Positions 19,122 to 25,100 of a DNA stretch of 64,000 nt are shown here, one piece after another. Both the position numbers and the translations under genes were made by a program. Numbering within the stretch: position 1 is the first letter of the stretch; every line of letters begins with the position of its first letter. Origin of the DNA: Antedon mediterranea (taxonomy: Eukaryota; Echinodermata; Crinoidea; Comatulida; Antedonidae). Where the stretch lies: contig NC_092678.1 of assembly GCF_964355755.1 (NCBI RefSeq), forward strand, positions 147,922 through 211,921. The letters run 5' to 3'. The notes beneath the pieces are model-generated. The model searched no databases. It was not told the origin of the DNA and worked only from the letters and a program-made list of their open reading frames with translations.

Positions 19122-22100
19122 CTACTTCTTATTTTGTTTTGCTTCCTTCTTTCTTCGTTTCATTAATAGCGGGTTTGTTGATTCTGAGATTGTTTTAATC
19201 TTAACTTGGTCGTAGTCAACACGCATCGTAGCGAGGGCGTTGGTCATCTCATCCTGCAAAACAAACAAATGTATTTGTATATAACAAACAAATGTACTGT
19301 ATTACATATTACAAAACAAAACCAACAATGTGTATATAAATAATTCAACTGGTTGGTGTGCTGTAAAATCAATTTTGCCACAAAAGGCCCCTGTAATGAT
19401 GACACCATTATACTCGGGACATGAGACTCCAATAAATATGGTTTCTTTTTAAATTTGCATGGCGTCCTCACCTGGATGTCGGCCCATTGTTCACTGTCTT
19501 CCTTCAATACCTTGGCAGAATGTAACGGAGTCTGTGGGACCTCATCTATCCTCTGAAATTTACATAATAGATTTAGATTTTTTCAAATATTTTGATGTTG
19601 TTTATAACAAAAGAAGCACATTTATACAAATGTATTAAAAGTACACAATACCAGGCAATCTATTACTGTTTTTTTTTGCTACATATTTAATTTGCATATT
19701 CACCTGCACCCATGGATGGTTGACAAATTCTGTGATTGTTAACCTCTGTGACGGGTCGGTCTTCAACAATTTTCGAATTAAATCTTTTGCTTCTTCAGAT
19801 ACTTGGCTCCATTCAGGATTGGGAAATTCGTACTGGCCATTGCGGATTCTCTTCTTCATTCCAGGTGAAATTGCCATGCCATGGTTACTGTAGAATGGTG
19901 GAAAACCACATAATCTGAAAAAAAAATGTATAAAATCGATTATAGAGATTGAACTACATTCAGAATTCTGATAAAAATAATAGTATATTGGAATATGTAT
20001 CAATGACGATACAATGTAACTTACAAAATGTACATAATAACACCTAACGACCACATGTCACAGGATTTGACTATACAATGTAACCTACAAAATGTACATA
20101 ATAACACCTAACAACCACATGTCACAGGATTTGACTATACAATGTAACTTACAAAATGTACATAATAACACCTAACAACCACATGTCACAGGATTTGACT
20201 ATAGAATGTAACTTACAAAATGTACATAATAACACCTAACAACCACATGTCACAGGATTTGACTATAGAATGTAACTTACAAAATGTACATAATAACACC
20301 TAACAACCACATGTCACAGGATTTGACTATACAATGTAACCTACAAAATGTACATAATAACACCTAACAACCACATGTCACAGGATTTGACTATACAATG
20401 TAACCTACAAAATGTACATAATAACACCTAACAACCACATGTCACAGGATTTGACTATACAATGTAACCTACAAAATGTACATAATAACACCTAACGACC
20501 ACATGTCACAGGATTTGACTATAGAATGTAACCTACAAAATGTACATAATAACACCTAACAACCACATGTCACAGGATTTGACTATACAATGTAACTTAC
20601 AAAATGTACATAATAACACCTAACAACCACATGTCACAGGATTTGACTATACAATGTAACTTACAAAATGTACATAATAACACCTAACGACCACATGTCA
20701 CAGGATTTGACTATACAATGTAACCTACAAAATGTACATAATAACACCTAACAACCACATGTCACAGGATTTGACTATACAATGTAACCTACAAAATGTA
20801 CATAATAACACCCAACAACCACATGTCACAGGATTTGACTATACAATGTAACCTACAAAATGTACATAATAACACCTAACAACCACATGTCACAGGATTT
20901 GACTATACAATGTAACCTACAAAATGTACATAATAACACCTAACGACCACATGTCACAGGATTTGACTATACAATGTAACCTACAAAATGTACATAATAA
21001 CACCTAACAACCACATGTCACAGGATTTGACTATACAATGTAACTTACAAAATGTACATAATAACACCTAACAACCACATGTCACAGGATTTGACTATAC
21101 AATGTAACCTACAAAATGTACATAATAACACCCAACAACCACATGTCACAGGATTTGACTATACAATGTAACCTACAAAATGTACATAATAACACCTAAC
21201 AACCACATGTCACAGGATTTGACTATACAATGTAACTTACAAAATGTACATAATAACACCTAACAACCACATGTCACAGGATTTGACTATACAATGTAAC
21301 TTACAAAATGTACATAATAACACCTAACGACCACATGTCACAGGATTTGACTATACAATGTAACCTACAAAATGTACATAATAACACCTAACAACCACAT
21401 GTCACAGGATTTGACTATACAATGTAACCTACAAAATGTACATAATAACACCCAACAACCACATGTCACAGGATTTGACTATACAATGTAACCTACAAAA
21501 TGTACATAATAACACCTAACAACCACATGTCACAGGATTTGACTATACAATGTAACCTACAAAATGTACATAATAACACCTAACAACCACATGTCACAGG
21601 ATTTGACTATACAATGTAACCTACAAAATGTACATAATAACACCTAACAACCACATGTCACAGGATTTGACTATACAATGTAACCTACAAAATGTACATA
21701 ATAACACCTAACAACCACATGTCACAGGATTTGACTATACAATGTAACCTACAAAATGTACATAATAACACCTAACGACCACATGTCACAGGATTTGACT
21801 ATACAATGTAACCTACAAAATGTACATAATAACACCTAACAACCACATGTCACAGGATTTGACTATACAATGTAACTTACAAAATGTACATAATAACACC
21901 TAACAACCACATGTCACAGGATTTGACTATACAATGTAACCTACAAAATGTACATAATAACACCCAACAACCACATGTCACAGGATTTGACTATACAATG
22001 TAACCTACAAAATGTACATAATAACACCTAACAACCACATGTCACAGGATTTGACTATACAATGTAACCTACAAAATGTACATAATAACACCTAACAACC

Positions 22101-25100
22101 ACATGTCACAGGATTTGACTATACAATGTAACCTACAAAATGTACATAATAACACCTAACAACCACATGTCACAGGATTTGACTATAGAATGTAACTTAC
22201 AAAATGTACATAATAACACCTAACAACCACATGTCACAGGATTTGACTATACAATGTAACCTACAAAATGTACATAATAACACCTAACAACCACATGTCA
22301 CAGGATTTGACTATACAATGTAACCTACAAAATGTACATAATAACACCTAACAACCACATGTCACAGGATTTGACTATACAATGTAACCTACAAAATGTA
22401 CATAATAACACCTAACAACCACATGTCACAGGATTTGACTATAGAATGTAACTTACAAAATGTACATAATAACACCTAACAACCACATGTCACAGGATTT
22501 GACTATACAATGTAACTTACAAAATGTACATAATAACACCTAACGACCACATGTCACAGGATTTGACTATACAATGTAACCTACAAAATGTACATAATAA
22601 CACCTAACAACCACATGTCACAGGATTTGACTATACAATGTAACCTACAAAATGTACATAATAACACCTAACAACCACATGTCACAGGATTTGACTATAC
22701 AATGTAACCTACAAAATGTACATAATAACACCTAACAACCACATGTCACAGGATTTGACTATACAATGTAACCTACAAAATGTACATAATAACACCTAAC
22801 AACCACATGTCACAGGATTTGACTATACAATGTAACTTACAAAATGTACATAATAACACCTAACAACCACATGTCACAGGATTTGACTATACAATGTAAC
22901 CTACAAAATGTACATAATAACACCTAACAACCACATGTCACAGGATTTGACTATACAATGTAACCTACAAAATGTACATAATAACACCTAACAACCACAT
23001 GTCACAGGATTTGACTATACAATGTAACCTACAAAATGTACATAATAACACCTAACGACCACATGTCACAGGATTTGACTATACAATGTAACCTACAAAA
23101 TGTACATAATAACACCTAACAACCACATGTCACAGGATTTGACTATACAATGTAACCTACAAAATGTACATAATAACACCTAACAACCACATGTCACAGG
23201 ATTTGACTATAGAATGTAACCTACAAAATGTACATAATAACACCTAACGACCACATGTCACAGGATTTGACTATACAATGTAACCTACAAAATGTACATA
23301 ATAACACCTAACAACCACATGTCACAGGATTTGACTATACAATGTAACCTACAAAATGTACATAATAACACCTAACGACCACATGTCACAGGATTTGACT
23401 ATAGAATGTAACTTACAAAATGTACATAATAACACCTAACAACCACATGTCACAGGATTTGACTATAGAATGTAACTTACAAAATGTACATAATAACACC
23501 TAACAACCACATGTCACAGGATTTGACTATACAATGTAACCTACAAAATGTACATAATAACACCTAACAACCACATGTCACAGGATTTGACTATACAATG
23601 TAACTTACAAAATGTACATAATAACACCTAACAACCACATGTCACAGGATTTGACTATACAATGTAACTTACAAAATGTACATAATAACACCTAACAACC
23701 ACATGTCACAGGATTTGACTATACAATGTAACCTACAAAATGTACATAATAACACCCAACAACCACATGTCACAGGATTTGACTATAGAATGTAACTTAC
23801 AAAATGTACATAATAACACCTAACGACCACATGTCACAGGATTTGACTATACAATGTAACCTACAAAATGTACATAATAACACCCAACAACCACATGTCA
23901 CAGGATTTGACTATAGAATGTAACTTACAAAATGTACATAATAACACCTAACGACCACATGTCACAGGATTTGTCATAACGTTCTGGTCCAAGGACTTCA
24001 GGAGCTGCAATAGAAAAAACATTTGATGTTAGTATTTAAGTGAGTCATTACGTATCGTAGTAGCACATATTCAACAGTAGGACTGTTCTCCCACAATGCA
24101 GTTCAACAGCATGATCAGCACACACACAATACCCCTTTTGAATAATACACTAGTCCATTATTGATTACACACACAATATATGTACACATGACCAACAGCT
24201 TTACTGTACGTCACACCCGATGGACAAGACAAAGAGTTTAAAGTATCTTGCCTTAAGATACAGACAGGTCTCGAACCCATGTCCCTCAAATGCTAGTTTG
24301 ATATCCCTTACATAGACACAATTTTAACCATTAATATTTACATACTTGTTTATATTAATCAGTTCTGTATTCAAATAATCAAAGTACTTACCCACATAGT
24401 AAGGAGTATAACATGGCGTTTGCAAACTCGTTGCCGACGTTGTTTCTTTGGCAAAACCAAAATCTGTCAACTTCAAAACTGAGTTAGATCCTTTATCTTT
24501 GAATAGCAAGTTCTCTGGTTTTAGATCTCTGTGCGCAATGTTCATGTTATGCAAGTAGTGAACAGCCTTGGCAATGTCAGATATTATTTGTGCTGCTTCT
24601 AAAAGATAATACAATTTTAAGATTTGTTAAATATTATTTATTCTTTAAATACACAACCTAAATATATCTGTCTAAGCATTATGGATTTCCTTTATCTAAA
24701 TTCAGATAATCTTAGATGAACAATATAAGAAGAAAATATTAAATGCTAATTTGTTTAATGGAACAGTACATTACTGCTTTTTGAATATCACTTTTCATAG
24801 AAGTTTATATACAGAAGATGGCTGAAAAGATGACATTCAAATAGTTTATATACAGAAGATGGCTGAAAAGATGACATTCAAATAGTTTATATACAGAAGA
24901 TGGCTGAAAAGATGACATTCAAATAGTTTATATACAGAAGATGGCTGAAAAGATGACATTCAAATAGTTTATATACAGAAGATGGCTGAAAAGATGACAT
25001 TCAAATAGTTTATATACAGAAGATGGCAGAAAAGATGACATTCAAATAGTTTATATACAGAAGATGGCTGAAAAGATGACATTCAAATAGTTTATATACA

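What the first reader, a model, noticed from the sequence alone, without database searches (positions are those of the whole stretch)
20009..23977. 62-copy minisatellite made from a kinase exon end and its 5' splice site
The repeat unit is the last ~45 bases of MAPKAPK2 exon 5 (subdomain [10 protein letters not shown]), its GT donor and ~18 bases of intron, repeated 62 times with exact 64-bp spacing over 4 kb. Each unit keeps a donor-like GTAAGT or GTAGGT on the sense strand and an ATTGTATAG acceptor-like end, so the transcript carries up to 62 decoy donors right after the true one and many potential 46-nt pseudo-exons. Keeping the true junction functional inside such an array is unexpected. 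It could work as a splice-site sink, length-dependent splicing control or a circular-RNA source.
Basis: partly seen in the sequence, partly recalled or inferred. Interest (0 to 1): 0.82.

Follow-up and report, generated by a model that had tools for sequence, protein, structure and literature searches.

The report
Minisatellite grown from an exon's end
A protein-kinase gene, probably of an animal, carries 61 extra tandem copies of the end of one exon and its splice signal inside the next intron, most likely a harmless, recently expanded repeat that the splicing machinery skips by using the first copy, but an unusual natural test of how a cell picks one splice site among dozens of near-identical ones.

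Summary
On the minus strand, 20005-23972 holds 62 head-to-tail 64-bp units with no length change. Each is the last 44 nt of coding exon 5 of an intact MAPKAPK2/3 homologue plus the first 20 nt of intron 5. Unit 1 is the real exon end. Intron 5 is 4014 nt = 110 + 61 x 64. Searches of the 354-Mb assembly found no other copy of the unit and no close second copy of the gene.

Best explanation: a partial tandem duplication across the 5' splice site grew into an intronic minisatellite by unequal exchange, in a minisatellite-rich stretch. It is tolerated because splicing from the first donor removes the whole array; later donors bring an immediate in-frame stop.

No support was found for a splice sink, length control or circular RNA, and none is excluded: no RNA, reads or relatives are available. 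The decoys nearly equal the true donor in U1 pairing (-5.1 or -5.4 versus -5.4 kcal/mol). Donor choice remains open and testable.

The parts
20005..23972 (-). 62 x 64-bp tandem array; unit = 44 nt of exon 5 end + 20 nt of intron 5
23929..24004 (-). Coding exon 5 of the MAPKAPK2/3 homologue (76 nt); its last 44 nt (23972-23929) are in unit 1 of the array
23909..23972 (-). Unit 1: the true exon end and the presumed true donor (TTTT|GTAAGT, intron starts at 23928); keeps the Ser codon TCG
20005..23908 (-). 61 intronic copies (units 2-62): 50 carry TTG (Leu) in place of TCG (Ser); 42 carry GTAGGT, 19 GTAAGT
   Evidence: counts over 62 units minus unit 1
19915..23928 (-). Intron 5, 4014 nt = 110 + 61 x 64
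19704..19914 (-). Coding exon 6, after acceptor TTTTTTTTTCAG|ATTAT
19122..28638 (-). MAPKAPK2/3 homologue from the chosen ATG to the stop: 8 coding exons, 368 aa, all 7 introns between them GT-AG; any upstream non-coding exon was not mapped
24802..25832 (-). Second array of the same gene, intron 3, 41 bp x 25, not touching an exon
27067..27351 (-). Third array of the same gene, intron 2, 25 bp x 11.4, 100% match, not touching an exon

Best explanation
A single tandem duplication with breakpoints in exon 5 (44 nt before its end) and 20 nt into intron 5 put a second exon-end-plus-donor into the intron. Because the first donor lies upstream of the copy, using it kept the mRNA unchanged. Further copies were therefore intronic and free to multiply by unequal exchange and conversion, as other minisatellites in this stretch seem to have done, up to 61 extra copies. 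Shown: anatomy, no other copy found, intact reading frame, intron arithmetic, homogeneity, mixed unit types, minisatellite-rich setting. Inferred: the history itself; that the first donor is the one used (exon definition of the 76-nt exon and first-transcribed advantage); and that the array has little effect on the gene.
For: Unit boundaries match exon 5 plus intron 5, and 4014 - 61 x 64 = 110 nt leaves a short intron with the present acceptor. The two edge units share the same 44-nt exon part, with TCG, and both have GTAAGT, as expected if the original exon end and the original intron start lie at the two edges. Five of 64 positions vary, one of them only in unit 62, and otherwise no variant is private to one unit. 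Three of six site pairs (19/47, 19/56, 47/56) show all four combinations, which points to exchange or conversion, or recurrent mutation. Unit types begin ABAB, and a six-unit block recurs (20 of 1000 label shuffles reach its length). The window is 22.8% tandem array; its six 10-kb pieces have a median of 1493.5 bp in arrays, against 355 bp in 17 interior samples. Two other arrays lie in introns of the same gene. A 64-bp seed at random in the pre-expansion gene would cover a junction about 20% of the time, or 36% for at least one of the gene's three arrays (rough, after the fact). Precedent: duplication across one intron-exon boundary, and introns across arrays of exon-derived repeats (PMC4974935, abstract and introduction read).
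Against: Published work finds SRSF1 favouring the intron-proximal of two competing donors and hnRNP A1 the intron-distal one (PMC5585400, passages); an SRSF1-like preference would pick a late copy and break the frame. The true donor is the weakest of the gene's seven in U1 pairing (-5.4 against -6.1 to -11.7 kcal/mol) and has little or no edge over the decoys. That unit 1 carries both TCG and GTAAGT would happen about 1 time in 10 by chance (6 of 62 units have both), so this is weak support for selection on unit 1. The GTAGGT units carry an AG as pyrimidine-rich as some real acceptors, opening an in-frame pseudo-exon, which a purely inert array need not have. 62 copies is the highest count in any array I saw, in the window or in the samples.
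Confidence: 0.82

Rival explanations
1. Splice sink or length-dependent control: the decoy donors capture U1 or are used part of the time, and such use gives an immediate stop and mRNA decay, so array length tunes MAPKAPK2 output.
For: 61 decoys with U1 pairing of -5.1 or -5.4 against -5.4 kcal/mol for the true donor; extension past exon 5 stops within four nt for each of the 4 donors tried (units 2, 3, 4, 62), and by sequence for any later donor, since unit 1's intron part is always included. In humans an intronic VNTR's length tracks exon skipping in ABCA7 (PMC5954066, abstract).
Against: No expression data. Donor types show no gradient along the array (10 GTAAGT in each half). 42 of 62 units carry the slightly weaker GTAGGT. 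Near-perfect homogeneity suggests an unstable length, a poor basis for evolved control (inference).
Confidence: 0.1
2. Assembly artefact: few real copies, inflated by assembly.
For: Raw reads cannot be seen here.
Against: Ten unit types are interspersed over 4 kb, with both edges distinct, and the window has no N. An array of this size is usually spanned by long reads (general knowledge; the read type of this assembly is unknown to me). Other arrays are present in the same stretch.
Confidence: 0.04
3. Some units serve as pseudo-exons (cassettes) or as a source of circular RNA.
For: In all 42 GTAGGT units, TTTTGTAG|G forms an AG with pyrimidine content 0.65; the stretch to the next donor is 60 nt, in frame and stop-free in 42 of 42, and would insert 20 residues repeating the kinase segment. 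Four of the gene's seven real acceptors score 0.59-0.65.
Against: 0.65 is reached by 18.6% of 2875 background AGs, so it is not distinctive. A 20-residue repeat inside the kinase fold would probably disrupt it (inference). No RNA data. My odds for this rival rose from 0.03 to 0.05.
Confidence: 0.05

Closest known systems
Intronic minisatellites / VNTRs (e.g. human ABCA7 VNTR, PMC5954066, abstract)
   Same: An intronic tandem repeat; here head-to-tail 64-bp units, highly alike
   Different: Here the unit includes 44 nt of coding exon and the 5' splice site itself, so each copy carries a potential donor; variable length is known for ABCA7, not here
Tandem duplication across an intron-exon boundary (potato RdRp gene, PMC4974935)
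   Same: The duplicated segment crosses one intron-exon boundary and copies splice signals
   Different: In potato it crosses the 3' boundary of the intron and made a new intron; here it crosses the 5' boundary, has 62 copies, and lengthened an existing intron
AGGT tandem-duplication arrays in fission yeast (SPOG_01682, SOCG_00815; as described in PMC4974935's introduction)
   Same: Several exon-derived tandem copies, with an intron across them
   Different: 24-bp exonic units, introns across four and two duplicates, offered as intron gain; here 64-bp units across an old donor
Earthworm metallothionein genes (PMC12783039, passages)
   Same: Intronic minisatellite-like arrays in two clones, and fourth-exon duplications in another clone that are absent from the transcript
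   Different: There the arrays and the duplicated exon are separate things; here the array unit itself is the exon end

Membership tests
Minisatellite | Head-to-tail array of units of about 10-100 bp | tested here: met
   64 bp x 62, no indels
Minisatellite | Exchange between units (blocks, mixed variants) | tested here: met
   3 of 6 site pairs with four combinations; recurring blocks; recurrent mutation not excluded
Minisatellite | Copy-number polymorphism among individuals (VNTR) | not testable with these tools
   One assembly only
Intron gain by AGGT tandem duplication | Duplication of a purely exonic segment creates a new intron | tested here: not met
   The unit holds 20 nt of intron; taking out 61 units leaves a 110-nt intron with a GTAAGT donor and the same acceptor. 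That the intron is older than the array is inferred, as no relatives are held.
Regulatory splice-site decoy | Decoy donors bound or used in RNA | not testable with these tools
   No RNA data; pairing energies only
Regulatory splice-site decoy | Conserved across species | not testable with these tools
   No relatives of this genome are held

The most novel reading that the evidence does not exclude
The array is a length-variable splicing rheostat: dozens of near-identical donors compete with a weak native one, so copy number sets how much kinase mRNA is productive or decays; and the variant that now fills 42 of 62 units turns each into a dual AG/GT site from which in-frame 60-nt cassettes repeating a kinase segment could be spliced in.
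Probability: 0.08. Interest if true: 0.8.

Novelty: new variant of a known kind. Interest (0 to 1): 0.45.

Why it matters
It is a natural experiment on donor choice: 62 donors of two types that differ by one base, at exact 64-nt steps, before one acceptor. Which one is used would test exon definition, first-transcribed and intron-proximal rules in one gene. It also suggests how a partial exon duplication can lengthen an intron about 36-fold (110 to 4014 nt) while the encoded protein stays intact, and it leaves a standing hazard: 50 of 61 intronic copies carry a Ser-to-Leu variant that conversion or unequal exchange could place in the exon.

Tried and rejected
Second gene copy: none found. Dispersed-repeat origin of the unit: no match outside the array. 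Coding use by read-through: rejected, 80-106 stops per frame on either strand over 62 units, longest open stretch 46 codons. Selection keeping decoys weak along the array: GTAAGT units spread evenly. My first reading of the acceptors used one unit only (unit 21); one search looked at all 61 units that have a successor and showed the 60-nt in-frame case, which I had missed. Species name: paper searches on assembly size and chromosome number gave no match (one search listed three bryozoan genomes of 235, 339 and 784 Mb), and a COX1 search of the assembly found nothing. The kinase-family search scored 127 of 891 candidates and did not list the array, so it cannot count similar arrays genome-wide. 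I did not map all exons of the window's other genes, so how often arrays touch exons in this genome is unknown. Searches for prior reports of an array built on a 5' splice site listed no identical case by title and start of abstract; two searches returned no paper, most listed papers were not opened, and only open-licence papers and exact words are covered. Passages of PMC8724738 and PMC5389562 were seen and did not settle donor choice.

Full report
OBSERVATION. TRF finds 62.0 copies of a 64-bp unit at 20004-23973. Counting units on the minus strand gives 62, with 61 of 61 spacings exactly 64 bp; in my register the array is 20005-23972. Five of 64 positions vary (0-based within the unit): 19 (C in 12, T in 50), 23 (G in 6), 47 (A in 20, G in 42), 56 (C in 10), and 60 (C in the last unit alone).

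GENE. A recalled human MAPKAPK2 sequence used as a lead located eight exons. The seven introns between them are GT-AG, and the joined frame encodes 368 aa with no internal stop. The best solved relative is MAP kinase-activated protein kinase 2 (2oza, E 1.5e-171; residues 24-362 aligned), with MAPKAPK3 chains also high. In the assembly (354 Mb, 18 contigs) the matches of 93-100% identity are this gene's exons, exon 5 is listed at 84%, and the highest identity elsewhere is 56% (over 64 and over 39 residues); the highest-scoring match elsewhere is 40% over 209 residues. Seven of eight exons were listed (not exon 3) and 111 of 305 candidates scored, so this is the only close copy found, though masked stretches could hide another. 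The codon at unit positions 18-20 is TCG (Ser, as in MK2's DMWSLG) in unit 1 and 11 other units, and TTG (Leu) in 50.

ANATOMY. The unit is 44 nt of the 76-nt exon 5 plus 20 nt of intron 5. Intron 5 is 4014 nt; minus 61 x 64 it is 110 nt, somewhat shorter than the gene's other six introns (151, 218, 233, 387, 1535 and 1872 nt). The 44 exon-derived nt of units 1 and 62 are identical. The simplest history is one duplication across the donor, with the original exon end at one edge and the original intron start at the other, then expansion between them.

TURNOVER. Leaving out unit 62, no variant is private to one unit: 0 in 61 x 64 = 3904 bases, 95% upper bound 7.7e-4 per base (rule of three). Three of six site pairs show all four combinations. 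There are ten unit types; the label string begins ABAB, and a six-unit block occurs twice; 20 of 1000 shuffles of the labels reach that length. The array is young or actively homogenised (inference).

SETTING. The window lies at 147,922-211,921 of contig C9. 42 non-redundant arrays (period >= 10) cover 22.8% of it. Of 18 interior 10-kb samples one was all N and dropped; the other 17 have a median of 355 bp in arrays; pooled they are 10.5% array, mostly because one piece is a 262-bp satellite from end to end. Six samples 170-180 kb from contig ends other than the window's have a median of 1051.5 bp (one-sided rank test against the interior p = 0.0099), and six 10-kb pieces of the window 1493.5 bp (p = 0.0012, but these are neighbours and the window was chosen); window and near-end samples do not differ (p = 0.48). 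Whether these are true chromosome ends is uncertain: of six ends read, one (C3 start) begins in CCCTAA repeats, one was all N, one mostly N, and three, the near end of C9 among them, showed no telomere repeat in 1500 bases. Two more arrays lie in this gene's introns 2 and 3, away from exons.

SPLICING. U1 5'-end duplex energies: true donor -5.4, GTAGGT units -5.1, the gene's other six donors -6.1 to -11.7 kcal/mol; 6.7% and 8.8% of 3676 background GTs do as well as GTAAGT and GTAGGT units (U1 end recalled). The native donor is weak and the decoys equal or almost equal. Using the donor of unit 2, 3, 4 or 62 adds 64(n-1) nt and meets an in-frame stop within four nt of the exon end; the same holds by sequence for any later donor. 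That AG has a pyrimidine content of 0.65, reached by 18.6% of 2875 background AGs and no lower than four of the gene's seven real acceptors (0.59-0.65), so it is possible but not distinctive.

I infer that the first donor is used, by exon definition of the 76-nt exon and because it is transcribed first. Against this, SRSF1 is reported to favour the intron-proximal of two competing donors, and hnRNP A1 the distal (PMC5585400, passages). The array is thus a real open test of donor choice.

PRIOR WORK. Potato RdRp: a duplication across an intron-exon boundary made a new intron; the paper's introduction also describes two fission-yeast genes with a repeated 24-bp AGGT segment and an intron across four and two duplicates (PMC4974935, abstract and introduction). 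Earthworm metallothionein: intronic minisatellites, and fourth-exon duplications absent from the transcript (PMC12783039, passages). ABCA7: VNTR length correlates with exon skipping (PMC5954066, abstract). Searches for an identical case listed none.

VERDICT. Most likely a neutral, young minisatellite seeded by a partial exon duplication across a 5' splice site, an unusual form of a known process.

Noticed in passing
window 1-64000: 42 non-redundant tandem arrays (period 10 or more) cover 22.8% of the window; 15 of 42 have 97% or higher internal match.
   Followed up: partly
window 48440-49902 and 59822-60846: Two further large arrays, 27 bp x 54 and 51 bp x 20, within the span of DOCK-family exons on the minus strand. 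Both units are multiples of three, and long frames stay open through them.
   Followed up: no
window 12849-14726 (-), 30561-32792 (+), exons within 44445-62054 (-), 2341-2592 (-): Neighbouring genes by Pfam: Bicaudal-D, an RRM plus SPOC protein, DOCK-family exons (DHR-2 lobes, DOCK-C2; two of the four matches fall below Pfam's cut-off), and an N1221-like exon.
   Followed up: partly
window 18397-19079: 62-bp x 11 array just 3' of the kinase coding region whose plus-strand unit contains ATG|GTGAGT, a donor-like word.
   Followed up: no
window 20005-23972 (-), the 42 GTAGGT units: The GTAGGT variant adds an AG right after the donor GT (GT-AG-GT), so one site could serve as acceptor or donor; from that AG to the next donor is a 60-nt in-frame open stretch.
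   Followed up: partly
L017 1-10000: The whole 10-kb sample of C9 near 10.0 Mb is a 262-bp satellite (38.9 copies, 81% match).
   Followed up: no
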